Shown one piece after another: positions 13,897-58,866 of a DNA stretch of 64,000 bases. The DNA is taken from NCBI RefSeq assembly GCF_036250755.1, contig NZ_CP109583.1, forward strand, positions 3,410,001-3,474,000, written 5' to 3'. The DNA is from Streptomyces uncialis. GTDB lineage: Bacteria; Actinomycetota; Actinomycetes; Streptomycetales; Streptomycetaceae. A program made the translations under genes and the position numbers. The notes beneath the pieces are model-generated. The model did no database searches. It was not told the origin of the DNA and saw nothing but the letters and a program-made list of their open reading frames with translations. The first letter of the stretch is position 1. Every line of letters starts with the position of its first letter.

Positions 13897-14020
13897 CCCC
13901 TCCGGGGCGCCCCGGGTTCCCCCGGCTTCCGGGACCTCGGTGGCTTCCCGGGCTTACCGGGCTTCCAGGTCTCCCGTCCGGTCGGTGATCCGCCCTCGTG
14001 GTGCCCGTCACGAGCCTCTG

Positions 14021-14046
14021 ACGTGCGACGAAAGCTCGTCGCACGT
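14021..14046. terminator. Perfect 11-bp hairpin after xseAB
   Basis: ACGTGCGACGA, loop AAGC, TCGTCGCACGT: a perfect 11-bp stem with a tetraloop, 125 bases beyond xseB and 48 bases before the -35 box of the next gene. Best read as the xseAB terminator, though its symmetry also fits a protein-binding operator. Confidence 0.65.
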
Positions 14047-14093
14047 GCTTCGCCATGTCCGCCTTCTTTGACACGGCTGCAACACTCCGTTAA

Positions 14094-14122
14094 TTGAAAC
14101 TTCAACCTTGGGGTTGTACAGT
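14094..14122 (+). promoter_or_regulatory. Sigma70-type promoter with overlapping palindrome
   Basis: -35 TTGAAA (14094-14099), a 17-base spacer and -10 TACAGT (14117-14122): close to the housekeeping consensus and rare in such GC-rich DNA. The -35 box sits in a palindrome TTGAA-AC-TTCAA (14094-14105), the type of site bound by MarR-like repressors. Drives the nitroreductase gene at 14186. Confidence 0.75.
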
Positions 14123-14185
14123 TATCAACGAAATCAGGGCCGGACACCCCTGTCCGCCGCCCCGTCCAGCAACGCGAAGGTTCAC

Positions 14186-14776
14186 ATGTCCCTCGTCCTC
14201 GCCCCCACCGCACAGGACCTCCTCTTCCGTGAGGCCCGCACCGCGAACACGTTCACCGACGAGCCGGTGACCGAGGAGCAGGTGCAGGCGATCTACGACC
14301 TGGTGAAGTTCGGCCCCACGGCCTTCAACCAGACCCCCCTGCGCGTCACCCTGGTCCGCTCCGCCGAGGCGCGTGAGCGACTGGTGGCCCATATGTCCGA
14401 GGGCAACCAGGCCAAGACCGCCACCGCGCCCCTCGTCGCGATCCTCTCCGCGGACAACGAGTTCCACGAGGAGCTGCCGCAGTTGCTGCCGCACTTCCCG
14501 CAGGCCAAGGACGCGTTCTTCGCGGAGCGGCCGGTACGGGAGAACAGCGCGCAGGTGAACGCGGCGCTCCAGGCCGGGTACTTCATCATCGGGGTGCGCG
14601 CCGCGGGGCTCGCCGCCGGGCCGATGACCGGGTTCGACTTCGCCGGGGTCCAGAAGGAGTTTTTGGACGAGGACCACTCGCCGCTGATGGTGGTCAACAT
14701 CGGGCGGCCGGGGGACGACGCGTGGTTCCCGCGGTCGCCGCGGCTGGGGTACGAGCAGGTCATCACCACGGTCTGA
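14186..14776 (+). CDS. Nitroreductase family protein (malonic semialdehyde reductase-like)
   Basis: 196-residue FMN-dependent nitroreductase fold. It starts with the family helix (LAPTAQDLLFREARTANTF), has KFGPTAFNQTPLRVTLVRS for FMN phosphate contact, and ends with GRPGDDAWFPRSPRLGYEQV. It most resembles the RutE/HadB-like group that reduces malonic semialdehyde or similar enals and quinones with NAD(P)H; the exact substrate is uncertain. ATG 14186 follows GAAGG. A near-consensus promoter with an overlapping palindrome lies upstream, suggesting strong but repressible expression. Confidence 0.87.
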   Translation: MSLVLAPTAQDLLFREARTANTFTDEPVTEEQVQAIYDLVKFGPTAFNQTPLRVTLVRSAEARERLVAHMSEGNQAKTATAPLVAILSADNEFHEELPQLLPHFPQAKDAFFAERPVRENSAQVNAALQAGYFIIGVRAAGLAAGPMTGFDFAGVQKEFLDEDHSPLMVVNIGRPGDDAWFPRSPRLGYEQVITTV

Positions 14777-14824
14777 CGGGTCTCCCCCCTCTCGGGCTCC
14801 GGTCCGCCGGTGGCCGTACGTGCC

Positions 14825-15860
14825 CCCGTGCGGGTCGCCCGGTCCCTGGCGCCCTTTCGGTCGTCCCGGCCGGGCCCACCTGTTCCCGTGCCGGTCGCTC
14901 GGTGGGTGCGCGGTTCCTCGCGCCCCTGAGGTCCGTCCGGCTGGGCGCACTTGTTCCTGCGCCGGTCGCTCGTGGGTGCGCAGTTCCCCGCGCCCCTTGC
15001 GTCGTCCCGGCTGAGCGCGCTTGTTCCTGTGCCGTCGCTCGGTGGGTGCGCGGTTCCCCGCGCCCCTGGGTTCCACACCTGGGCGTACTTGTTCCCGTGC
15101 GGGTCGTTCATGGGTGCGCAGTTCCCCGCGCCCCTTGAGTCGTCCCGGCTGAGCGCACTTGTTCCTGTGCCGTCGCTCGGTGGGTGCGCAGTTCCCCGCG
15201 CCCCTGAGGTCGCCCCGGCTGGGCGTACTTGTCCCTGTGCGGGGCGTCCGTGGTGCGCGGTTCCTCGCGGCCCTGGGTGGTGCCCCATTGCTGTCGCTCT
15301 TCGAGTGCGGGGCGGTTCTCGTCTTCGCGCAGTTCCCCGCGCCCCTTTCGGGGCTCTTGACCCGTCGCTGGTCAAGAGCCGGACCCGACCGCCCAGGCCA
15401 GGCGGCACCCCCAGGGGCGCGAGGAACCGCGCAAAACCACCGGATACCCGCGCGGAAACACGTAGGCCCACCCGGGACGACCCAAGGGGCGCGAGGAACC
15501 GCGCACCCCCGGAGTACCCGCACGGGAAACAGAACGCCCAGGTGGGGAACCCAAAGGGGCGCGGGGAACTGCGCACCCACGAACGACCCGCACAGGAACA
15601 CGTACGTTCAGGTGGGGAACCCCAGCACGGGGAACCGCGCGTCCACCGGGCGACCCGCGCAGGAACAAGTGCGCCCACCTGGGGAACCCCAGGGGCGCGA
15701 GGAACCGCGCATCCCGCGGGCGACCCGCACCGGGACAAGTGGGCCCGGCCGGGACGGCCTCAGGGGCGCGGGGAACTGCGCACCCACGGACGGGGGCACA
15801 GGGGCAAGTGCGTCCCGGTGTCGGGACCCGGTTCCGGCCAGGCATCCCGCACGGGAACAT
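14825..15860. repeat. Array 1: ~70-bp repeats, 7 forward then 6 inverted units
   Basis: Forward cores (variants of GCAGTTCCCCGCGCCCCT) begin near 14906, 14976, 15046, 15114, 15184, 15253 and 15325. Inverted cores (AGGGGCGCGGGGAACTGC) begin near 15413, 15485, 15555, 15624, 15691 and 15762. The period is 67-72 bases throughout. Each unit also carries a block like CTGGGCGTACTTGTTCC plus GTGCGGGTCGCTC between cores. The turning point holds a perfect 11-bp inverted repeat, GGCTCTTGACC ... GGTCAAGAGCC (15351-15379). The whole forms a large imperfect palindrome filling the convergent gap between the nitroreductase and DUF4245 genes. Open frames inside are spurious (repeated PRAP peptides). Confidence 0.93.
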
Positions 15861-15897
15861 GTGCGGGACCGACCACACCCCGTAGCCCCGGCGGGGC

Positions 15898-16593
15898 TCA
15901 CGCCTTCGTGGTCAGTGCCCCGGCCATCATCGCGAGCCGGGTGAACGACGCCGAGCCGGTGATCACGGTGGTCGCGTCGCCCTCCGTGAGGACGAGCGCG
16001 TCGTACCGCTCCCCCTCGTACTTCTCCCACACACGGCCGTCGATCGTCTGGGTCGCGTCCGTCCTGCGGGCTCCCCTGCTCGCCTGCTCGGCGAAGACCC
16101 GGGGCTTCTCGGTGGACTGCTCGATCGCGACGTACTTGCCGTCCGGCGACCGGAATCCCAGGTGCCAGCGGCTGGCCTCGGCGGAGCGGTAGCGCACGGA
16201 GGTCGGCTTCCACTCCTTGGAGAGCCCCTCGGGCGCGGCGATGGGGTACGGCGCGGCGCGACGGGCCGTGATGAGTTCGATGCGGTAGTCGATCGCCTTC
16301 ACCGGGTCGCCGTCCTCGTCGTGCGGGAGGAACAGCCAGATGACTCCCGCGAAGAGGACCGTCACCCCCAGCGACAGCACCATGTTCCGTACGCTCTGCT
16401 TGCCGAGTCTGCCTGCCACGCGCACCATCGTCGCAGGTCCGCTTCCCGCCCCCGGCACCGGGCCCACGCCGGCGCCCGCCGAGGACCCCGCGGCCCGCGC
16501 GAACGACGACCCCTCCGCCACCGGCCCGCGGCCACCCGCCCCCACCTGCGACGGGGTGCCCGCGCGGACCGCGGGGGCACCCTCCGCGCTCAT
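15898..16593 (-). CDS. DUF4245 membrane-anchored protein
   Basis: 231 residues from ATG 16593: a Gly/Ala-rich N-terminal 60 residues, a single transmembrane helix (MVLSLGVTVLFAGVIWLFL) and an extracytoplasmic domain (ITARRAAPYPIAAPEGL, WKPTSVRYRS, WHLGFRSPDGKYVAIEQS). This is the DUF4245 family, which regularly lies divergent to glpX in actinobacteria; its role is unknown. An inner start at 16428 would remove the low-complexity part. Its 3' end abuts the inverted arm of repeat array 1. Confidence 0.85.
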   Translation of the reverse strand: MSAEGAPAVRAGTPSQVGAGGRGPVAEGSSFARAAGSSAGAGVGPVPGAGSGPATMVRVAGRLGKQSVRNMVLSLGVTVLFAGVIWLFLPHDEDGDPVKAIDYRIELITARRAAPYPIAAPEGLSKEWKPTSVRYRSAEASRWHLGFRSPDGKYVAIEQSTEKPRVFAEQASRGARRTDATQTIDGRVWEKYEGERYDALVLTEGDATTVITGSASFTRLAMMAGALTTKA

Positions 16594-16684
16594 CCGTGGG
16601 CCCCCCTGCTCATTCCGGTGACCTGCGGATAGAGTCGGAACACACCCTCATCCGGCCGTCGTCGTATCAGAAAGGTGCGTCTCG

Positions 16685-17719
16685 ATGACCGAACATCATC
16701 AGTTGCCGACCGAACTCGAAGTCCCGTCGGAGGCCCCCGACCGCAACCTGGCCCTGGAGCTCGTCCGGGTGACCGAGGCCGCGGCCATGGCCGCGGGCCG
16801 CTGGGTCGGCCTCGGCGACAAGAACAGGGCCGACGGCGCGGCCGTGCGGGCCATGCGCACCCTCGTCTCCACCGTGTCGATGAACGGCGTCGTCGTCATC
16901 GGCGAGGGCGAGAAGGACGAAGCGCCCATGCTCTTCAACGGGGAGCGGGTCGGGGACGGCACCGGCGCGGAGTGCGACATCGCCGTCGACCCGATCGACG
17001 GGACCACCCTGACCGCCAAGGGCATGCCGAACGCGGTCGCGGTCCTCGCGGCGGCCGACCGGGGCACCATGTTCGACCCGTCCGCCGTGTTCTACATGGA
17101 CAAGCTCGTGACCGGCCCCGAAGCCGCCGACTACGTCGACATCGACGCCCCGGTCTCGGTCAACATCCGCCGGGTCGCGAAGGCCAAGCGCTCCTCCCCC
17201 GAGGACGTCACCGTCGTCATCCTCGACCGGCCCCGGCACGACGGGATCATCAGGGAGATCCGTGAGACGGGCGCCCGGATCAAGCTGATCTCCGACGGCG
17301 ATGTCGCGGGCTCGGTGCTCGCCGTCCGCGAGGGCACCGGCGTCGATCTGCTGCTCGGGATCGGCGGCACCCCGGAGGGCATCATCTCCGCGTGTGCCAT
17401 CAAGTGCCTCGGCGGCACGATCCAGGGCAAGCTCTGGCCCAAGGACGACGAGGAGCGGGAACGCGCCCTCGCCGCGGGCCATGACCTCGACCGGGTGCTC
17501 GCCACGAACGATCTGGTCTCCGGGGACAACGTCTTCTTCGTGGCGACAGGTATCACCGACGGCGAGCTGCTGCGCGGGGTGCGCTACCGCTCGGAGACGG
17601 CGACCACGTCGTCGCTGGTGATGCGCTCCAAGTCGGGCACGATCCGCCAGATCGACTCCGAGCACCGGCTGTCGAAGCTGCGCGCGTACAGCGCCATCGA
17701 CTTCGACCGCGCGAAGTAG
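16685..17719 (+). CDS. glpX: Class II fructose-1,6-bisphosphatase
   Basis: 344 residues, full length. Dephosphorylates fructose 1,6-bisphosphate in gluconeogenesis, with Mn/Mg. The metal site [15 protein letters not shown] is near residue 100, preceded by [14 protein letters not shown], and the substrate region [20 protein letters not shown] is present. ATG 16685 follows GAAAGG. Divergent from the DUF4245 gene and convergent with the WhiB-like gene, an arrangement conserved in Streptomyces. Confidence 0.97.
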
Positions 17720-17762
17720 CCGGACGCCACCCGGCGGTCGCCCGGTTCCGGGCAGCCGTCGC

Positions 17763-17820
17763 CGGGTACGGCCACGGGGGCGCCCCGCTGTGCGGGTGGG
17801 CGTCCCCGTCGCCGTACCGG
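17763..17820. terminator. Bidirectional hairpin between glpX and the whiB-like gene
   Basis: Two 23-base arms (17763-17785 and 17798-17820) pair with three mismatches around a 12-base loop. It sits between two convergent genes, fitting a shared terminator. Confidence 0.65.
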
Positions 17821-17843
17821 AGAAGGGTGTACGGGCGGGCGGT

Positions 17844-18221
17844 TCAGCCGGCCGCGGCGATCGGGTCGGCCACGTGGGCCGCCTTCTTCAGCTCGACGTC
17901 CCGCCTGCGGCGGCGCGCGAGGACCACCCGGCGCTCGGCGGCGGTGAGTCCGCCCCAGACCCCGTACGGCTCGGGCTGGAGCAGTGCGTGTTCACGGCAT
18001 TCGATCATCACGGGGCAGCCCCCGCAGACCCGCTTGGCGGCTTCCTCCCGGGACAGCCGGGCCGCTGTGGGTTCCTTGGAGGGAGCGAAGAAGAGCCCGG
18101 CCTCGTCGCGGCGGCAGACCGCTTCCGTGTGCCATGGGGCGTCCTGATCCCGATCCTGTGTTGGTACCCGCTGTGGTGGGACGGCGGCTACCTGCAAGGA
18201 CTGATGCGGCGGATGCAGCAC
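17844..18221 (-). CDS. wblI: WhiB-like Fe-S transcription factor
   Basis: 125 residues. The four cluster Cys are EAVCRRDEAGLFF and RVCGGCPVMIEC, followed by the GVWGG turn and a basic C-terminus (RRVVLARRRRRDV) that contacts DNA or sigma factor. GTG 18221 is chosen because AGGAG lies 6 bases upstream. The position convergent with glpX matches, as I recall, wblI of S. coelicolor; the family assignment is firm, the gene name less so. The NO- or O2-sensitive cluster would link expression to redox state. Confidence 0.88.
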   Translation of the reverse strand: MLHPPHQSLQVAAVPPQRVPTQDRDQDAPWHTEAVCRRDEAGLFFAPSKEPTAARLSREEAAKRVCGGCPVMIECREHALLQPEPYGVWGGLTAAERRVVLARRRRRDVELKKAAHVADPIAAAG

Positions 18222-18386
18222 GGTCTACTCCTGACGACGGCTTCGCAAGGGAGCGGCGATGCAGCAAGCCCTACCCGCTGTGCGCGTTCCTATGCACTGA
18301 GTCCCCATGCCCGAAGCTTCCCGTCCGGTCGCGGACCCGTCCCGCCAGGGGCCGGACAGGGTGCCGACCGGGCCGCTGAACTCCCG

Positions 18387-19088
18387 TCAGAACCGCAGGT
18401 ACTTGCGCATCCGGTCGCTGGTGGCCGGGTTCGCCAGGGCGTTGGCGACCCGGCGGCCCTTGCGCGCCCTGGCCTCGATGTTGCCGAGGGCGGAGATCCC
18501 GTCGACGTAGACCACCGGCGCGTCCGGGTCGGGCGAATCGAGGCTGTCCACCTCGAAGTTGCCGAGCACACCGCCCCCGTTGCCGCGCAGCGAGATGTTC
18601 TCCGGGACGGTTATCTCGACATTGCCGAAGAGGCAGAACGCCTTGACGACGACCTGCCGGTGCTCGAAGACCGCCTCGCTCAGGTCGATCTCGACGCTGC
18701 CGAAGACCGCGTACGCGTGGGTGCGCCGGGAGACGCGCCAGCGGCCCCGGCGGACACTGCTGCTGAACACCGCGACGAGGTTCTCGTCCGGCGCGGGCGG
18801 CACGGCCCCGGAGTCCGGGCGGTTGGGGGCGGGGTGCGCGGGCCGGACGTGCGGGTGTCCGGCGCCGTCCGGGGAGGGCAGGTCCCGTACGTACGGTTCG
18901 AGTTCGGTGACGGTCTTGGCGCGGTACACGCCCTCGACCCGCTCGGCGTGCTCGTCGGAGGTGATCCGCCCCTCGCCCAGCGCGTCACGGAGGATGTCGG
19001 CGATCCGGTCCCGGTCGGCGTCCGAGGCGCGGAGCTCCACGGGCGGCGGATCGGCGGTCGGTTCCTGGCGGCGCTTTTCGAGGTCCAC
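18387..19088 (-). CDS. DUF1707 protein with LiaF-like C-terminal domain
   Basis: 233 residues. An N-terminal DUF1707 segment (ELRASDADRDRIADILRDAL, GEGRITSDEHAERV) resembles a short SHOCT-like helical domain. A Pro-rich linker leads to repeats of beta-strand type (YAVFGSVEIDLSEA, FCLFGNVEITVPENI, GVLGNFEVDS) like the cell-wall-active antibiotic response (LiaF-type) domain. No membrane helix. The GTG at 19088 lacks a ribosome site; a TAATCT box six bases upstream suggests a leaderless message. Function unknown; perhaps envelope stress. Confidence 0.85.
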   Translation of the reverse strand: MDLEKRRQEPTADPPPVELRASDADRDRIADILRDALGEGRITSDEHAERVEGVYRAKTVTELEPYVRDLPSPDGAGHPHVRPAHPAPNRPDSGAVPPAPDENLVAVFSSSVRRGRWRVSRRTHAYAVFGSVEIDLSEAVFEHRQVVVKAFCLFGNVEITVPENISLRGNGGGVLGNFEVDSLDSPDPDAPVVYVDGISALGNIEARARKGRRVANALANPATSDRMRKYLRF

Positions 19089-19399
19089 GGCCTCAGATTA
19101 CCCAGACGCGATAGATCGCGACTAGGGGGCCGCGCCGGTCGGATGCCCCGGCGCACGACCACTTCGGCCGAACCCGCCGACAGCCCCGTCCCCGTACGGC
19201 ATGCTGTCCGGCACCCCGGCACCCCCGTACGGAGTCCGGGCGCGTCCCGTACGGCGTCCGGCGGCCGGTCCTTGAGCCGAAAGCCACGGTCAGACAGACG
19301 CACCCACCCCCACCACGGTTGTCCGGGGCCCCGGATTACGCTGTAGGGTGCGCCGCCGACGGAGGTGCGCCGCTTGTCTTTTAGTGAGGAATAGGCGTT
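19089..19399. other. Divergent intergenic region, DUF1707 gene / class I fumarase
   Basis: No gene seen. Left edge holds the DUF1707 promoter (TAATCT on the minus strand at 19095-19100 and the palindrome at 19107-19120). Right edge holds the fumarase ribosome site GTGAGGAATAGG before ATG 19400; a weak TAGGGT at about 19344 could be its -10. Confidence 0.4.
19095..19120 (-). promoter_or_regulatory. Leaderless -10 with palindrome CGCGAT-AG-ATCGCG
   Basis: The palindrome CGCGATAGATCGCG (19107-19120) has perfect 6-bp arms around AG. On the minus strand TAATCT follows it and ends six bases before the DUF1707 GTG. The palindrome would overlap the -35 region, a common place for a repressor site. 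Confidence 0.5.
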
Positions 19400-21067
<1,668 letters not shown>

Positions 21068-21212
21068 GCCGCCGCACGGGGGAGCGCCGGCTCCCCCGCC
21101 CGGGGCATCTCCGGTGTCCGCCGGCGGTCGGGGGGCAGGGGAATAGCGGGAACAGGACAACCGCTCACCCTTGCGGGAACTCTGACCGACCGGCTCTGGA
21201 GGTAGTACCACG

Positions 21213-22643
<1,431 letters not shown>

Positions 22644-22667
22644 CCCCACCCGACCCCTACCCGGGCC

Positions 22668-23600
22668 CGCCCCTGCGGTTCCCCGCGCCGGACGCACTCG
22701 TTCCTGTGCGGGTCGCTCGTGGGATGCGCAGTTCCCCGCGCCCCTGGGTCTGTCCGGGCGGGCGTACGTGTTCCCTGTGCCGTCGCTCGCTGGGTGCGCA
22801 GTTCCCCGCGCCCCTAGGGTTCCCCACCTGGACGTACTTGTTCCCGTGCAGGTACTCCGGGGGTGCGCAGTTCCCCGCGCCCCTGGGGTTCCCCACCTGG
22901 ACGTACTTGTTCCCGTGCAGGTACTCCGGGGGTGCGCAGTTCCTCGCGCCCCTGGGTTTGTCCGGCTGGGCGTACTTGTTCCCGTGCGGGTACTCCGGGG
23001 GTGCGCAGTTCCCCGCGCCCCTGGGTTTGTCCGGGTGAGCGAAATTGTTCCTGTGCGGGTCGCTTGTGGAGTGCGCAGTTCCCCGCGCCCCTAGGGTCGC
23101 CTGTGCTGGGCGGACTCGTTCCTGTGCCGTCGCTCGGTGGGTGCGCGGTTCCTCGCGCCCCTGGGGGTGCCGCCTGGTCTGGGGCGGTCGGGTGCGGGCG
23201 GCAGCTGACCGGCGACGGATCGAGAGCCCCGAAAGGGGCGCGGGGAACTGCGCGAAGACGAGAGCAGCCCCGCACCCGAAGAGCAACGGATCGGGGCAGC
23301 ATCCAGGGGCGCGGGGAACGGCGCAAAACCACGGAGTACCTGCACGGGGAACAAGTACGTCCCCCGGGCAGACCCAGGGGCGCGAGGAACCGCGCACCCC
23401 ACGAGCGACCCGCACAGGAACAGGTACGCCCGGCACAGGAAACCCAGGGGCGCGGGGAACTGCGCACCCACCGGGTGACGGCACGGGAACAAGTACGTCC
23501 AGGTGGGGAACCCTAAGGGGCGCGAGGAACCGCGCATCCCACGGGCGACCCGCACGGGAACAAGTACGACCACCCGGGCAGACCCAGGGGCGCGGGGACG
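22668..23600. repeat. Array 2: ~70-bp repeats, 7 forward then 6 inverted units
   Basis: Forward cores begin near 22724, 22794, 22863, 22932, 23001, 23071 and 23141, with a partial one before them at about 22675. Inverted cores begin near 23234, 23305, 23376, 23446, 23516 and 23586, the last truncated. Period 69-71 bases. Same unit as array 1, with CTGGACGTACTTGTTCC and GTGCAGGTACTCC variants. Here the flanking genes (fumC and DUF402) run the same way, so the array follows fumC and precedes the DUF402 promoter. Confidence 0.93.
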
Positions 23601-23732
23601 GGTGGGTGTGCGGGCGTATCTGGGGCGCGGGCCGCCGGACGCGGGCGCCGGGGCGGGGCGGGACGTGGGGCTCGGGCCTCCCCGGACGGGGGTTCGTGGG
23701 GGATTTCCCGCGCGCCGCGCGAGGGCGGCTCC

Positions 23733-23738
23733 TAGTAT
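23733..23738 (+). promoter_or_regulatory. -10 like TAGTAT, probable leaderless start
   Basis: TAGTAT ends six bases before the ATG at 23745, and there is no ribosome site. The best -10 match among the candidate leaderless genes here. Confidence 0.5.
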
Positions 23739-23744
23739 CTGGGC

Positions 23745-24422
23745 ATGGCAGGCGAGAACGAGGTACGTGGGCGGGGGGAGCCGTGGCGTGCGGGGACCCG
23801 GATCCTGTGGCGGTACCGGGCGAACGGCGGGGACGGTTTCCACATCTGCCGGCCGGTCACCGTCGTCCAGGACACCCCCGACCTGCTGGCCGCGTGGATG
23901 GCCCCCGGCACGGAATGCGTCCGTCCGGTGCTCACCGACGGCACCCCCCTGCACGCGGAACCGCTGGCCACCCGCTACACCAAGCCCCGTACCGTCCGCC
24001 GGGACCACTGGTCGGGCGCCGGGGTGCTGAAGCTGGCCCGGCCCGGGGAACCCTGGTCGGTGTGGCTGTTCTGGTACCCCGACTGGCGGTTCAAGAACTG
24101 GTACGTGAATCTGGAGGAGCCACGGGTCCGCTGGGACGGCGGGGTGGATTCGGAGGACCATTTCCTGGACATCTCCGTACGCCCCGACCGAAGCTGGCAG
24201 TGGCACGACGAGGACGAGTTCGCGCAGGCACAGCGGGCCGGGCTGATGGGCCCGCGGCAGGCGCGGCGGGTGAGGGAGGCGGGAGACGCGGCGGTCGAGG
24301 TGATCAGGAGCTGGGGTCCGCCGTTCGCGGACGGCTGGCCCGGCTGGCGGCCCGATCCGGCATGGCCGATTCCGGCCTTGCCGGACAACTGGGATCGCAC
24401 CCCCGCGCAAGTGTCCTCATGA
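23745..24422 (+). CDS. DUF402 domain protein
   Basis: 225 residues. The DUF402 fold is visible: FHICRPVTVVQDTPDLLAAW, then WSVWLFWYPDWRFKNWYVNL, then GVDSEDHFLDISVRPD and WHDEDEF. Members are acidic metal-binding hydrolases, some acting on nucleoside di- or triphosphates; the specific substrate is unknown. The Asp/Glu pattern looks intact. ATG 23745 is likely leaderless. Confidence 0.85.
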   Translation: MAGENEVRGRGEPWRAGTRILWRYRANGGDGFHICRPVTVVQDTPDLLAAWMAPGTECVRPVLTDGTPLHAEPLATRYTKPRTVRRDHWSGAGVLKLARPGEPWSVWLFWYPDWRFKNWYVNLEEPRVRWDGGVDSEDHFLDISVRPDRSWQWHDEDEFAQAQRAGLMGPRQARRVREAGDAAVEVIRSWGPPFADGWPGWRPDPAWPIPALPDNWDRTPAQVSS

Positions 24423-24515
24423 GACCCTTGATGTGCCCCCATGGTTCAAACGTAGGATCGTCCTCCGCAAGGGCGCACAGCAGCAACTCCTTGGGCTTGC
24501 GCGAGGGCTGACAGG

Positions 24516-34641: not shown

Positions 34642-37034
34642 CCGGTACGCGGACACCCGCCCGGCCCGCGGTGGCGCGGTCGGCCGCCCCGCCCGCGCGC
34701 GGGGGCCTGGTGAGCGGATGGACCCGTGATCTGGGGATGGGGGTGAAGTTCGCCTTCACCGGCGGCCGGGAGTCCTGGGTCCGGACACTCCTCACCGCGA
34801 TCGGGGTGGGCCTCGGGGCGGCCATGCTGCTGCTCACCACGTCCGTGCCGGAGGCCCTGGCCGAGCGCACCGCCCGCGGTGACGCCCGGTTGGACACGTC
34901 GTACTCCGGCAAGCCGCTGGCCAAGGCGGACAACACCCTGCTGACGGCCCCGGCCGACACGTCCTTCCGGGACAGGGACGTCCGCGGACGGCTCCTCAAG
35001 GCGGAGGGGCCGCGAGCCCCGCTGCCGCCCGGGCTCGGCGCGTTCCCGGCCGTGGGCGAGATGCACGTCTCCCCCGCCCTGCGCGAGCTGCTGGCCTCGC
35101 CGGACGGAAAGCTGCTGAAGGACCGCCTTCCGTACCGGATCAGCGGCACCGTCGCCGACGAGGGGCTGATCGGCCCGGCCGAACTCCTCTACTACGCGGG
35201 GTCCGGCGAGCTCGACGGCCTCACGGCCGACGAATCCCTCGCGACACGGATCGACAGCTTCGGCGCCAAGACGCTCAAAGAGCCGCTGGACCCCATCCTG
35301 ATGCTGCTGGTCGTGATCATCCTGGTGGTCCTGCTGATGCCGGTCATGGTGTTCATCGCCACGGCCGTCCGCTTCGGCGGGGAACGGCGGGACCGGCGGC
35401 TGGCCGCGCTGCGCCTGGTCGGCTCGGACGCGCGGATGACCCGCCGGATCGCCGCGGGCGAGACGGTCGCGGGCGCGCTGCTCGGACTCCTCTTCGGCGT
35501 CGGGATGTTCCTCGCCGGCCGGCAGCTGGCCGAGCGGGTCACCGTCGAGCGGATCTCCGTCTTCCCCGAGGACCTCAGCCCCACCCCCGCGCTCGTCGCG
35601 CTGGTACTGGTGTCCGTGCCGGTCGCCGCGGTGGCCGTGACGCTGTTCGCGCTGCGCGGGGTCGTCATCGAGCCGCTCGGTGTCGTCCGGACGTCCGCGC
35701 CCAAACCGCGCAAGCTGTGGTGGCGGCTGCTGGTGCCGTTCCTCGGACTGCTGATGCTCGTCCCGATGTTCGGACAGGGCTCGGAGGGCGGGTTCTTCAA
35801 CACGTACCTCGTCGTCGGCGGTACGGTCCTGCTGCTCGTCGGGATCACCGCGCTGCTGCCCTGGGCCGTCGAGGCCCTGGTCGGCAGGCTCGGGGCCGGG
35901 CCGGTGGCCTGGCAGCTGGCCGTCCGGCGGCTCCAGCTCAGCAGCGGGAACGCCGCCCGGATGGTCAACGGCATCGCCGTGGCCGTCGCCGGAGCGGTCG
36001 CCCTCCAGATGCTGTTCGCCGGGATCGAGGACGACTACACGATTCCCGGCCAGGGCCCGGTCCGCGCCCAGATGGACGTCTATCTGCCCGAGTCGGTGTC
36101 CGTGTCCGACGCCGAGCGCAAGCTGTCGGGCACGACCGGGGTGGAGCGGACCGTCGCGATGGCCATGGGCTGGGCCGGGGGGCACCGGAAGGACTCCGAC
36201 AGCTCGGTGCCGATCACGGTCGGCGGATGCGAGGTGCTGCGCGAGGTGGCGAAGCTGCCGTCGTGCCGTGACGGTGACACCTTCCTGATCGACTCCGCCA
36301 CCGACAGCGGCAAGCGGGCCAAGAAGCTGGCGGACCGGGGCGGCACGCTCTATCTGGACCCCTCGTCCGAGATGTTCAAGGGCGCGGAGGCCCCGTGGCG
36401 GCTGCCCGGACGGCTCACCAGGGCCGAACCGGCGCCCGACCCCACCGGATACAGCCGGGACGGGTTCCTCGTGACCCCCGGGGCGTTCCCGGACGACACG
36501 GCCGGCGCGCTCCACCCGAGGGTGTTCATCCAGATCGACGAGGACCAGCCGGACGCGTACGAGTACGCGCGTACGGCGACGGCCCAGCTGAGCCCGTTCG
36601 CCTCCCCCTCGACGTACAACGCGCCGCAGAGGGCCGAGCCGTTCGAGAACATCCGCACCGGACTGTCCATCGGGGCGTCCTGTGTGCTGATGCTGATCGG
36701 CGCGAGTCTGCTGATCTCCCAGATCGAGCAGTTGCGGGAGCGCAAGAAGCTGCTGTCGGTGCTGGTCGCGTTCGGGACGCGGCGGCGGACCCTGGCGTGG
36801 TCCGTGATGTGGCAGGCGGCGGTCCCGATCGCGCTGGGGCTGGTGCTGGCGGTGATCGTGGGACTGGGTCTCGGCGCGGTGCTGCTCACGATGACGCGGG
36901 AGAGCATCCGGGTCGACTGGGACAGTCTGTGGGCGATGACCGGGATCGCGGCGGGGGTGGTGTTCCTGGTGACTGCGCTGAGCATGCCGGCGTTGTTCCG
37001 CCTGATGCGGCCGGAGGGCCTCCGCACGGAGTAG
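34638..37034 (+). CDS. FtsX-like ABC transporter permease
   Basis: 798 residues. N-terminal membrane helix (LLTAIGVGLGAAMLLL), extracytoplasmic domain, then two FtsX modules: PILMLLVVIILVVLLMPVMV onwards in the middle and IGASCVLMLIGASLLISQIE to VVFLVTALSMPALFRLM at the end, about 10 helices in all. Works with the ATPase upstream (ATGA overlap). Transporters of this build export or release antibiotics, peptides or lipids; with a PadR repressor a drug-resistance or lipid-export role is likely. Ligand unknown. Confidence 0.92.
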   Translation: MTGTRTPARPAVARSAAPPARGGLVSGWTRDLGMGVKFAFTGGRESWVRTLLTAIGVGLGAAMLLLTTSVPEALAERTARGDARLDTSYSGKPLAKADNTLLTAPADTSFRDRDVRGRLLKAEGPRAPLPPGLGAFPAVGEMHVSPALRELLASPDGKLLKDRLPYRISGTVADEGLIGPAELLYYAGSGELDGLTADESLATRIDSFGAKTLKEPLDPILMLLVVIILVVLLMPVMVFIATAVRFGGERRDRRLAALRLVGSDARMTRRIAAGETVAGALLGLLFGVGMFLAGRQLAERVTVERISVFPEDLSPTPALVALVLVSVPVAAVAVTLFALRGVVIEPLGVVRTSAPKPRKLWWRLLVPFLGLLMLVPMFGQGSEGGFFNTYLVVGGTVLLLVGITALLPWAVEALVGRLGAGPVAWQLAVRRLQLSSGNAARMVNGIAVAVAGAVALQMLFAGIEDDYTIPGQGPVRAQMDVYLPESVSVSDAERKLSGTTGVERTVAMAMGWAGGHRKDSDSSVPITVGGCEVLREVAKLPSCRDGDTFLIDSATDSGKRAKKLADRGGTLYLDPSSEMFKGAEAPWRLPGRLTRAEPAPDPTGYSRDGFLVTPGAFPDDTAGALHPRVFIQIDEDQPDAYEYARTATAQLSPFASPSTYNAPQRAEPFENIRTGLSIGASCVLMLIGASLLISQIEQLRERKKLLSVLVAFGTRRRTLAWSVMWQAAVPIALGLVLAVIVGLGLGAVLLTMTRESIRVDWDSLWAMTGIAAGVVFLVTALSMPALFRLMRPEGLRTE

Positions 37035-37055
37035 CCCTCCGGGTCCCCCTTTCCC

Positions 37056-37090
37056 GGGGCCCCGGGTTCCCTCCAGGAGCCCGGGGCCCC
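37056..37090. terminator. Hairpin after permease gene
   Basis: GGGGCCCCGGG (37056-37066) pairs perfectly with CCCGGGGCCCC (37080-37090), 13-base loop. It starts 22 bases beyond the permease stop and lies before repeat array 3, so the array is not the only terminator here. Confidence 0.7.
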
Positions 37091-37109
37091 TCAGCCCGTC
37101 CTTGTCCCC

Positions 37110-37948
37110 GTACTGGTTGTCCGGGGTGCGCGGTTCCCCGCGGGTCGCCTTCGCTTGCGCTTGCGAGGTTTGTCCGGCTGGGCGCACTTGTCCCGTGCGG
37201 GTCGCTCGTGGGGTGCGCAGTTCCCCGCGGGTCGCCTTCGCTTGCGCTTGCGAGGTCTGTCCGGCTGGGCGCACGTGTTCCCGTGCGGGTCGCTCGTGGG
37301 GTGCGCAGTTCCCCGCGCCCCTGGGGTTCCCCACCTGGGCGGACTTGTTCCTGCACAGGTTGTCCGGGGGTGCGCAGTTCCCCGCGCCCCTGGGTGGTGC
37401 CCCATTGCGGTTGCCCTTCGGGTGCGGGCCGTCCTCGTTGGTGCGCAGTTCCCCGCGCCCCTGGGTGGTGCCCCGTTGCGGTTGCTCTTCGGGTGCGGGC
37501 CGTCCTCGTCTTCGCGCAGTTCCCCGCGCCCCTTTGGGGGCGCCCGCCTGGGGCTTTCGTCCGGCTGCGGGCTGTCAGCGACCGGGGTCGGGGTTCAAAC
37601 CACCCTCCTCCCGCACTCGCGCTGCTGCGGGAGGGGGTGGGCGGGAATCTCTGCTCGCAGACTCCGATGCTCTTCAGTCGGGCAACGAAACGAATTACCG
37701 AGCGTGTCGGATCGAGGACGGAGAATCCCGACCGGCACCGACCCGAAGAACGGCAGAACGCGCCCCAAAGGGGCGCGGGGAACTGCGCGAAACCACCGAA
37801 CGACGGCACAGGAACAAGCGCGCCCACCCGGACAGACCTAGGAAGCGCAAGCGAAGGCGACCCGCGGGGAACTGCGCACCCCACGAACGACGGCACAGGA
37901 ACGAAGTACGCCCAGCCGGGCAGACCTCGAAGGCGCGAGCGGCGGGGG
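37110..37948. repeat. Array 3: ~70-bp repeats, 6 forward then 2-3 inverted, with mirrored variant
   Basis: Forward cores begin near 37126, 37213, 37301, 37370, 37441 and 37512. Inverted cores are near 37769 and 37860, with a decayed remnant to 37948. Forward units 1 and 2 carry an altered tail (CGGGTCGCCTTCGCTTGCGC) in place of CGCCCCT and so step by 87-88 bases. The same variant appears inverted in the right arm (GCAAGCGAAGGCGACCCGCG, 37849-37868). A 215-base unique centre (37549-37765) separates the arms. It fills the convergent gap between the permease and oxyR. Confidence 0.92.
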
Positions 37949-38917
37949 CTAACGGAGGACCCGGACCGGCAGTCCCGCGAGGCGTTCGCGCAACGCGTGC
38001 GCCAGCTCGCCGTACTCGGCACCCCGCGCGGCCCCCGTCCGCATCACCAGCGCGACCCGCCGGCTGGGCGCCGGCTCCGCGAACCGCCCCGTCCGCAGCC
38101 GCACGTCCCGCGCGGTCTCCACCGGCACCGCCGTCCGCGGCAGCAGCGTGACCCCCAGCCCCCCGGCGACCAGCTGGACCAGGGTCGACAGCCCGGCGGC
38201 GGTCGTCGTCACCGGACCGTCCGCCCGCCCCGCGTGCCGGCACACCTCCAGCGCCTGGTCCCGCAGACAGTGGCCCTCGTCGAGCAGCAGCAGATCGAGC
38301 CCGCGCAGCGCGTCCCGGGCGATCCCCTCGCGCCCCGCGAGCTCGTGCTCGGCCGGGGTGACGAGCACGAAGTCCTCCTCGAAGAGGGGCAGCTCGGTCA
38401 CCCCGGGCACCCCGAGCGGCACCGCGAGCAGCAGCAGGTCGAGCCGTCCGCCGGTGAGTCCGTCGACGAGGGAGGCCGTCTGCTCCTCGTGGACCTCCAG
38501 CTCCAGCGACGGATAGGTGTCGTGGGCGAGCCGCAGCACCGTCGGCAGCAGATAGGGCGCGACCGTGGGGATCACCCCGAGCCGCAGTGTCCCGGTGAAC
38601 GGCGCGCGGACGGCCGCGGCCTCCTCCAGGAGGTCACCGACCGCGTCCAGCACGCCCTTGGCACGCCAGGCGAGCCGTTCCCCGGCGGGCGAGAGCAGCA
38701 CCTTGCGGGTGGTGCGTTCGAGGAGCTGGACCCCGAGCACGTCCTCCAGCGCGGAGACCGCGCCGGACAGCGCGGGCTGGCTCATCCCGATGGCCGCCGC
38801 CGCGTCCCGGAAGTGCAGATGCTCGGCGACCGCGGCGAAGGCCCGGAGCTGGGCGATACTGGGCTGCTTGCCCCGGCTGACAGCGCCCGCTCGCAGGGCG
38901 CCCGGCTTCCCGGCCAC
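37949..38917 (-). CDS. oxyR: LysR-type peroxide sensor OxyR
   Basis: 322 residues. The N-terminal helix-turn-helix (QLRAFAAVAEHLHFRDAAAA, GMSQPALSGAVSALED) and the LysR effector domain are complete. The redox pair is recognisable in LLLDEGHCLRDQALEVC, matching the Cys199/Cys208 region of OxyR. GTG 38917 follows GGAGGA by 8 bases. Divergent from ahpCD, which it should activate on oxidation. Its stop abuts the inverted arm of array 3. Confidence 0.93.
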   Translation of the reverse strand: MAGKPGALRAGAVSRGKQPSIAQLRAFAAVAEHLHFRDAAAAIGMSQPALSGAVSALEDVLGVQLLERTTRKVLLSPAGERLAWRAKGVLDAVGDLLEEAAAVRAPFTGTLRLGVIPTVAPYLLPTVLRLAHDTYPSLELEVHEEQTASLVDGLTGGRLDLLLLAVPLGVPGVTELPLFEEDFVLVTPAEHELAGREGIARDALRGLDLLLLDEGHCLRDQALEVCRHAGRADGPVTTTAAGLSTLVQLVAGGLGVTLLPRTAVPVETARDVRLRTGRFAEPAPSRRVALVMRTGAARGAEYGELAHALRERLAGLPVRVLR

Positions 38918-58111: not shown

Positions 58112-58552
58112 TCACTCGTCGGTGGGCATGGTGACCTCCCGGCGGACCTCCATGCCGGAGCCGAGGAACGGGACGAGGAGGGGAACGTTCACGGTGACGG
58201 TCGCGCGGGACAGTTCGGGCCCCTCGGAGGTGGTCACCGTCGCGTCGAGTCCGCTGTCCATCGCGGCGAGCCCGGCGGCCTCCCCGGGGCCGCCCTGGGC
58301 GGTGACCCGGGCCGCGGCACGGGCCGCGGAGCCCGCCTGGCTCGCGGAGTACCCGATGAGCCCGAGCTGGATCGCCGCGAGCCCCACCAGCAGCAGCACC
58401 GGCAGGAACCCGGCGAACTCCAGCGTGCTGACCCCCCGGTCGCCCCGACGCCCCCGAATCCCGACGGTACGCCCGCCCGGCCCCGGACCCGCAGACGACC
58501 GCCGCCGACCCGAAGGGCCCCGAAAGGGGCGCGGGGAACTGCGCAAAACCAC
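58112..58552 (-). CDS. tadE: TadE-like pilus assembly protein, start uncertain
   Basis: 146 residues from the GTG at 58552. The TadE motif GDRGVSTLEFAGFLPVLLLV begins a hydrophobic helix (LAAIQLGLIGYSASQAGSAA), then an exported domain ending VPFLGSGMEVRREVTMP. The frame stays open upstream to a GTG at 58870 that overlaps the previous gene's stop (GTGA), but those 106 extra codons run through two copies of the ~70-bp repeat family and read as Arg/Gly/Ser-rich nonsense. Either the repeats were inserted after an ancestral coupled start, or the real start is inside them, with GGGTGG about 10 bases upstream. Confidence 0.75.
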   Translation of the reverse strand: MVLRSSPRPFRGPSGRRRSSAGPGPGGRTVGIRGRRGDRGVSTLEFAGFLPVLLLVGLAAIQLGLIGYSASQAGSAARAAARVTAQGGPGEAAGLAAMDSGLDATVTTSEGPELSRATVTVNVPLLVPFLGSGMEVRREVTMPTDE

Positions 58553-58660
58553 CAACGACCGGCCACCCGAGAACCCGGCCCGAGCCGCACCAGCGCGACC
58601 CGCACCCGCCCCCCAACGGCACAACAAGCCCCGAAGGGGGCGCGGGGAACTGCGCAAAAC
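58525..58660. repeat. Two inverted copies of the ~70-bp repeat core within the tadE upstream frame
   Basis: Cores AGGGGCGCGGGGAACTGC (58525-58542) and AGGGGGCGCGGGGAACTGC (58635-58653), each followed by GCAAAACCACC, about 110 bases apart. They lie between the cpaE-tadE fusion and tadE, on the same strand sense as the inverted units of the arrays. Each is preceded by an A-rich break (GAAAGG or GAAGGG) giving a short CCCCTTTCGGGG-like stem on the other strand. Confidence 0.85.
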
Positions 58661-58866
58661 CACCGGCGACCGGTCACCCGACAACCGGCGCCCAGCCGCA
58701 CCAGCGCCACCCGCACCCGCCCCGCGACCCCCGGACGGACGCCGACGCGAGCTCCCCGCCAGGGGTCCGCGGAACCGGGCGACCCCAGGAACCCTGGGAA
58801 CTCCGGGATCCCTGGGAACCCCAGGGATCTGGCGGGACCGGACGGACCGGGAACCCCCCGGCCTCC

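What the first reader, a model, noticed from the sequence alone, without database searches (positions are those of the whole stretch)
14825..15860. ~70-bp repeats arranged as a giant palindrome (7 forward, 6 inverted) between convergent genes
Thirteen copies of a core close to GCAGTTCCCCGCGCCCCT occur at 67-72-base steps. The first seven point one way, the rest the other, around a centre with a perfect 11-bp inverted repeat. A transcript from either side could fold each arm onto the other. Known REP/BIME elements are smaller and pair singly. This regular, mirrored build suggests growth by inverted duplication or a structural role at gene ends (termination, mRNA 3' protection, or DNA cruciform/gyrase site).
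Basis: seen in the sequence. Interest (0 to 1): 0.75.

Follow-up and report, generated by a model that had tools for sequence, protein, structure and literature searches.

The report
Mirrored repeat arrays at gene ends
This stretch is one of many mirror-image repeat arrays in a Streptomyces genome; it lies where related species have one small hairpin between two facing genes, and it most likely works as an overgrown two-way transcript-end signal that keeps gaining and losing repeat units.

Summary
In detail: 7 forward, then 5 clear (plus 1 decayed) inverted cores at ~70-base steps fill the 1121-nt gap between a nitroreductase and a DUF4245 gene. It is not unique: the core occurs 1579 times in the genome (control 35). 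In a 1.6-Mb sample it forms 90 clusters, and all 64 two-way ones run forward-then-reverse. S. uncialis has the same array with other unit numbers, so it is no assembly error. Arms differ by whole units; mirror partners are no more alike than units of other arrays, so inverted duplication of the arms is not supported. The perfect 11-bp centre is absent from the three related centres compared. In 37 of 39 other orthologous convergent pairs the gap is under 400 nt; 33 of those 37 hold a hairpin of 10 or more pairs, and none holds a core. Best reading: a Streptomyces-specific, U-poor, two-way 3'-end element whose arms grew by tandem duplication. Main rival: a selfish or neutral repeat tolerated at gene ends. 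No RAYT-type transposase gene was found. No held paper contains the core letters searched.

The parts
14777..15897 (.). whole gap between the two stop codons, 1121 nt, filled by the mirrored array
14837..15346 (+). forward arm: seven cores (14908, 14978, 15048, 15116, 15186, 15255, 15327) plus a decayed one at 14837
15341..15354 (+). closing stem GCCCC/GGGGC at the inner end of the forward arm
   Evidence: sequence; such stems follow 126 of 155 last-in-arm cores and 18 of 272 others in the 1.6-Mb sample
15347..15412 (.). short centre (66 nt) with the perfect 11-bp inverted repeat 15352-15362 / 15370-15380; related, inverted, to the centre of the second array
15413..15781 (-). reverse arm: five cores (15413, 15485, 15555, 15691, 15762) plus a decayed one near 15624
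14108..14776 (+). nitroreductase-family gene (PF00881; start 14108 or 14186), convergent left neighbour
15898..16593 (-). DUF4245 gene (PF14030; start codon not settled), convergent right neighbour
22668..23598 (.). second mirrored array of the window, short centre (7 forward, 5 reverse cores); a predicted tandem (++) gap
37123..37941 (.). third mirrored array, holding one copy of the long conserved centre (about 37534-37768)
58517..58723 (-). one-way cluster, period 111 (two reverse cores with 0-1 mismatch)

Best explanation
The array is a bidirectional transcript-3'-end element. Its building block, the 20-nt core, ideally followed 1-6 nt later by GGGGC so that GCCCC/GGGGC closes a U-poor GC hairpin, also occurs as single copies in other Streptomyces, mostly in gaps next to stop codons. 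In this lineage such palindromic seeds grew into arms: copies of a ~70-nt unit were added and lost by tandem duplication and deletion within an arm, and the commonest (long) centre type appears to be exchanged between loci by recombination. Because the seed is a palindrome, growth inside each arm gives 'forward arm, centre, reverse arm' with no inverted duplication. A transcript from either gene runs through its own arm in the same sense and meets the closing hairpin at the inner end; RNA that reads past the centre folds back on the first arm. Shown here: anatomy, position, unit gain and loss, distribution, a single hairpin at the orthologous site in other species. Inferred: that transcripts of both genes end or are protected here, the palindromic seed, the order of events, recombination as the exchange mechanism.
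For: Place: clusters in 35 of 231 convergent against 54 of 1070 other gaps, odds ratio 3.4, p 8e-7; in 47 tandem gaps nearer the upstream stop in 36, p 9e-5; in stretches of four other species 22 of 120 convergent, 29 of 396 tandem, 6 of 104 divergent gaps. Same site elsewhere: of 42 other DUF4245 loci, 39 keep the convergent nitroreductase, 37 with a gap under 400 nt (median 94), 33 of 37 with a stem of 10 or more pairs, 0 of 37 with a core. Inner hairpin: closing stem after 126 of 155 last-in-arm cores, 18 of 272 others, 2.1% of random places. Tandem growth. In G156 the whole palindrome is repeated instead, as expected if a palindrome is the seed. Passages of PMC12207403 say Streptomyces terminators have few Us and the most stable hairpins.
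Against: No transcript data. The consensus terminator scan finds 2 sites against 0.9 +/- 1.1 in shuffles. Two-way arrays also lie in tandem gaps (32 of 64) and in predicted divergent gaps (5 of 64), where one or no gene end faces them; divergent against tandem is not significantly lower (7/233 against 47/837, p 0.13). The closing stems of the long-centre arrays are part of a shared centre and so not independent; in G059 only 4 of 31 last cores have one (G109 8 of 27, G128 9 of 19). No compensatory changes in the centre and no support for a second hairpin in the unit.
Confidence: 0.55

Rival explanations
1. A selfish or neutral interspersed repeat (REPIN- or MITE-like in behaviour), spread and homogenised by recombination, with no host function; it is found at gene ends because insertion or growth elsewhere is harmful.
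For: Copy number runs from 0 to 1579 among 199 genus genomes. The long-centre tag has 216 copies here and 217 in S. uncialis but 0 in the 198 other genomes searched. Long centres differ by 5.7% between orthologous sites while flanks differ by 0.58%, and at 158 of 207 differing sites both letters occur in at least 2 of 30 paralogs. Species without arrays at this site manage with one hairpin.
Against: No empty site between this genome and S. uncialis (33 of 33 mapped clusters occupied in both). No Y1 transposase of the RAYT type in this genome. Other species have forward-then-reverse arrays with other unit lengths and without this centre tag, which suits a shared constraint.
Confidence: 0.33
2. 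A DNA-level site for relief of supercoiling between converging genes (gyrase or cruciform).
For: Convergent gaps are enriched; the arms are inverted repeats; the window's perfect centre replaces a quasi-palindrome, which would fit template switching in an extruded hairpin (inference).
Against: 55 of 90 clusters are not in recognised convergent gaps; the perfect centre is not conserved. Gyrase binding was not testable.
Confidence: 0.08
3. An assembly artefact (collapsed or falsely mirrored repeats).
For: Repeats of this kind are hard to assemble from short reads (general knowledge).
Against: The separately assembled S. uncialis DCA2648 has mirrored arrays at both sites, with different unit numbers and close flanks; forward-then-reverse order is seen in 24 of 25 two-way clusters of the stretches of G059, G109 and G128.
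Confidence: 0.02

Closest known systems
Streptomyces intrinsic and bidirectional terminators (passages of PMC12207403, PMC8269248, PMC6742748)
   Same: Very stable GC hairpins with weak U tracts downstream of genes; some transcript ends overlap on both strands
   Different: Those described in the passages are hairpins or 3' ends, not arrays; here 12 clear cores and 1.1 kb of mirrored sequence
REP / BIME elements of enterobacteria (recalled)
   Same: Many short palindromic units in gaps, often at gene ends, in combinations of both orientations
   Different: Here the order is strictly forward arm then reverse arm in 64 of 64, with ~70-nt units and a separate centre
REPINs with RAYT transposases (recalled)
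   Same: Two inverted copies of a short core round a centre, in hundreds of places
   Different: No Y1_Tnp gene in this genome; among the six highest-count genomes four (G000, G109, G059, G032) have none and two (G128, G156) have one or more
BOX elements of pneumococcus and MIRU of mycobacteria (recalled)
   Same: Intergenic repeats with a variable number of tandem modules
   Different: One direction of modules there, as recalled; here two mirrored variable arms

Membership tests
REPIN/RAYT system | Cognate Y1 (RAYT) transposase gene in the genome | tested here: not met
   PF01797: 0 matches in G000; the control genomes ring in 5 of 14
REPIN/RAYT system | Two inverted copies of a short core as the basic unit | tested here: met
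   Forward-then-reverse pairs in G059, G109, G128; whole palindromes repeated in G156
MITE / transposable element | Occupied and empty sites with clean borders | tested here: inconclusive
   0 empty sites among 33 mapped clusters against S. uncialis; in distant species the site lacks cores but borders cannot be read
Intrinsic terminator | GC hairpin followed by a U tract | tested here: not met
   Closing GC stem present but the consensus scan is not above chance; U-poor terminators are reported for Streptomyces
Bidirectional terminator (functional) | Transcripts of both facing genes end in it | not testable with these tools
   No RNA data; position and ortholog comparison only
BIME | Alternating orientations of REP units | tested here: not met
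   0 of 90 clusters with mixed or reverse-then-forward order; recalled definition
CRISPR array | Unique spacers between one-way repeats | tested here: not met
   Two orientations, and spacers are related (61-75% mean identity)
Known Rfam RNA family | Covariance-model match above the family's gathering score | tested here: not met
   No match up to E 1 in 14000-24500; six matches in 36900-38200, all far below gathering scores

The most novel reading that the evidence does not exclude
An undescribed, Streptomyces-restricted family of self-expanding terminators: a 3'-end hairpin motif of the genus that in several lineages turned into mirrored, variable-number arrays with lineage-specific unit length (57, about 70, 71-77, 84 nt) and centre. 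In this lineage about 216 copies of one centre evolve in concert by exchange between loci, without a RAYT, giving a few hundred gene ends quickly changing two-way 3' ends.
Probability: 0.4. Interest if true: 0.72.

Novelty: new variant of a known kind. Interest (0 to 1): 0.55.

Why it matters
If the arrays end transcripts, this genome holds a few hundred terminators that change size between near-identical strains: a natural series for testing how hairpin number and long foldback affect termination and mRNA stability in GC-rich genomes where U tracts are weak. If they are selfish, they are a very high-copy family without a Y1 transposase in this genome. Either way, hundreds of dispersed, closely similar inverted arrays are substrates for recombination and a hazard for short-read assembly.

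Tried and rejected
RAYT mobilisation: no Y1_Tnp gene in this genome; 66 of 199 genus genomes have one, but not G000, G109, G059 or G032, four of the six highest core counts. Phage or plasmid origin: no match of window 37300-37790 in the plasmid or phage records and 0 exact cores in viral contigs; a viral search with the nitroreductase was also empty. Inverted duplication of arms. A conserved second hairpin in each unit: the loop motif is found after 129 of 427 cores, and pairing is about what column composition predicts. A structured RNA in the conserved centre: no pair with compensatory change on either strand, no Rfam match above threshold. CRISPR-like array: spacers are related. Rank-specific units, which would show that whole arms were copied: same-rank units of different arrays are 0.67-0.71 alike, different ranks 0.66-0.70. 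One-way arrays in tandem gaps: 9 read with the genes, 6 against (from the table), no firm link; single cores in tandem gaps of G109 and G128: 9 with, 2 against (counted by eye), a small sample.

Literature: searches (listings; up to 12-15 rows shown of 22 and 115) and the two letter searches gave no description of this repeat. I read passages of PMC8269248, PMC6742748, PMC1590033 and PMC12207403. Most subscription papers are not held, so this is no proof that it is unpublished.

Weak points: the first ortholog script placed nitroreductase stops wrongly and its gap lengths are void; one search replaces it. The home-made gene finder covers 79% of the sample, so some gap types will be wrong; 4 of 90 clusters overlap a predicted gene there. 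The 13% expected for random mutation assumes even mutation over columns; fast-mutating columns could mimic part of the exchange signal. Stretches of G059, G109, G128 and G156 were mostly chosen where cores were listed, so they are not random samples.

Full report
Observation. The sequence between a nitroreductase gene (PF00881, + strand, stop at 14776) and a DUF4245 gene (PF14030, - strand, stop at 15898) is 1121 nt long and is filled by a mirrored array. Seven forward cores (14908 to 15327, 0-1 mismatch to GCGCRGTTCCYCGCGCCCCT) are followed by five reverse cores (15413 to 15762); one decayed forward copy lies at 14837 and one decayed reverse copy near 15624.

It is one of a large family. The genome (9.26 Mb) has 821 forward and 758 reverse cores with up to 2 mismatches, against 22 and 13 for the reversed pattern. 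The window alone has three more clusters. I took 1.6 Mb of the genome as four 400-kb segments, one of them around the window. It has 427 cores in 90 clusters: 64 run forward-then-reverse, 21 are one-way with several copies, 5 are single, none runs reverse-then-forward or mixed. By proportion the genome would hold some 330 clusters (inference). The genus is Streptomyces: the nearest named record is S. uncialis DCA2648, 99% identical in DUF4245.

Anatomy. Centres between the last forward and the first reverse core are of two kinds: 16 short (core-to-core distance 64-111) and 48 long (155-281). The long ones share a conserved directional element; 216 copies of its 22-nt tag are in the genome. With a long centre the arm on one fixed side is longer in 42 of 48, equal in 4, shorter in 2 (means 3.5 and 1.3 cores). 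The finding's array has a short centre that is related, inverted, to the centre of the array 7.8 kb away. Its perfect 11-bp palindrome is not present in S. uncialis or in either version of the other array, and those three nearly agree with each other at that place; so it is probably a recent change in this lineage, perhaps by template switching (inference). A closing stem, GGGGC 1-6 nt after the core, follows 126 of 155 last-in-arm cores, 18 of the other 272, and 2.1% of random places. So each arm mostly runs into a hairpin that faces the centre. Two cautions: long centres share their ends by descent, and in other species the share is lower (G059 4 of 31, G109 8 of 27, G128 9 of 19).

Place. 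With a home-made gene finder (79% coding, 1305 genes) clusters lie in 35 of 231 convergent, 47 of 837 tandem and 7 of 233 divergent gaps, with one undetermined. Convergent against the rest gives an odds ratio of 3.4, p 8e-7; divergent against tandem is not significant (p 0.13). In 47 tandem gaps the array is nearer the upstream stop in 36 (medians 123 and 194 nt; p 9e-5). So gene ends are preferred, but convergent genes are not required.

Nearest relative. S. uncialis DCA2648 has both of the window's large mirrored arrays. In the finding's array the left arm differs by two whole units and the right by one. Over the 400 kb around the window, 33 of 34 clusters could be mapped; all 33 are occupied in both genomes, 13 differ in core pattern, 21 differ in length by 20 nt or more, and none changes polarity. 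Within an arm, units are 69% (neighbours, 116 comparisons) or 75% alike (non-neighbours, 176); mirror partners of equal rank 61% (33), mirror units of other rank 66% (115), units of different arrays 63% (1456). Arms therefore changed each on their own, by tandem events.

Exchange between loci. Long centres differ by 5.7% (202 of 3550 aligned sites, 17 pairs) between orthologous sites, short ones by 3.8% (8 of 212, 3 pairs), flank anchors by 0.58% of 43,053 aligned bases. At 158 of 207 differing sites both letters occur in at least 2 of 30 paralogs elsewhere in the genome, at 46 only one does, at 3 neither; random mutation would give about 13%. Gene conversion between copies is the simplest reading; hypermutable columns are not excluded.

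Genus and beyond. Among 199 genus genomes drawn evenly, the core count runs from 0 to 1579. This genome is highest, then G109 (1263), G059 (901), G128 (815), G156 (591) and G032 (571); by my count of the table 33 genomes, this one included, have 100 or more. In 24 genomes of other genera the counts are 0-5, about the control level. The centre tag is in this genome (216) and S. uncialis (217) and in none of the 198 other genus genomes searched. In fetched stretches of other species the two-way clusters are forward-then-reverse in 13 of 13 (G059, mostly 57-nt steps), 7 of 7 (G109) and 4 of 5 (G128), while G156 repeats the whole palindrome (8 mixed, 1 one-way, 1 reverse-then-forward); a G095 array with 84-nt steps shows in the listing. 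These stretches were mostly chosen where cores were listed. Of their 62 clusters 22 lie in 120 convergent, 29 in 396 tandem and 6 in 104 divergent gaps, 1 inside a predicted gene, 4 undetermined.

Same place in other species. I examined 42 other DUF4245 loci: 29 (30 loci were fetched of 59 genomes with a match, one being this genome) and 13; some may be the same species. In 39 the convergent nitroreductase is in the locus; in 37 the gap is under 400 nt (median 94); 33 of the 37 have a stem of at least 10 pairs; none of the 37 has a core with up to 3 mismatches. In this lineage the array stands where most others have one hairpin.

Folding. A read-through RNA folds arm on arm (441 of 455 pairs cross the centre), 288 kcal/mol better than the arms apart; 20 shuffles give -602.0 +/- 9.1 against -866.5. 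This follows from the mirrored build and is no proof of function. The consensus scan for classical terminators is not above chance (2 against 0.9 +/- 1.1). The conserved centre shows no compensatory changes.

Literature. Two letter searches found no paper with the core; word searches (listings) showed none that describes such a family. Passages of Streptomyces Term-seq papers report U-poor, very stable hairpins (PMC12207403), bidirectional transcript ends (PMC8269248) and U-rich motifs at only 194 of 1640 ends in S. lividans (PMC6742748). Comparisons with REP, BIME, REPIN, BOX and MIRU rest on recall.

Verdict. Real, not an artefact, and part of a large family; the mirrored build is explained by a palindromic seed with independent tandem growth of its arms. 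A two-way 3'-end function is the best reading (0.55); a selfish or neutral repeat tolerated at gene ends is the main rival (0.33).

Noticed in passing
window 37123-37941: Third array holds one of about 216 copies of a conserved, directional, non-coding long centre (roughly 200-255 nt), known here and in S. uncialis only; its nature is unexplained.
   Followed up: partly
L031-L110 (own genome sample): In long-centre arrays the longer arm is on a fixed side of the directional centre in 42 of 48; no explanation found.
   Followed up: partly
window 37123-37300 and 37858-37941: Outer units of many arrays are a variant of 87-89 bases in which the core end is replaced by a GGGTCGCCTTCGCTTGCGC-like stretch.
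   Followed up: no
L162-L164 (G156): Another Streptomyces genome repeats the whole palindrome in tandem (steps of 80 and 104, period about 184) instead of growing arms.
   Followed up: partly
window 15347-15412: The centre looks like a quasi-palindrome turned into a perfect 11-bp palindrome in this strain, as template switching would do.
   Followed up: partly
window 58517-58723: One-way array with a different period (111).
   Followed up: no
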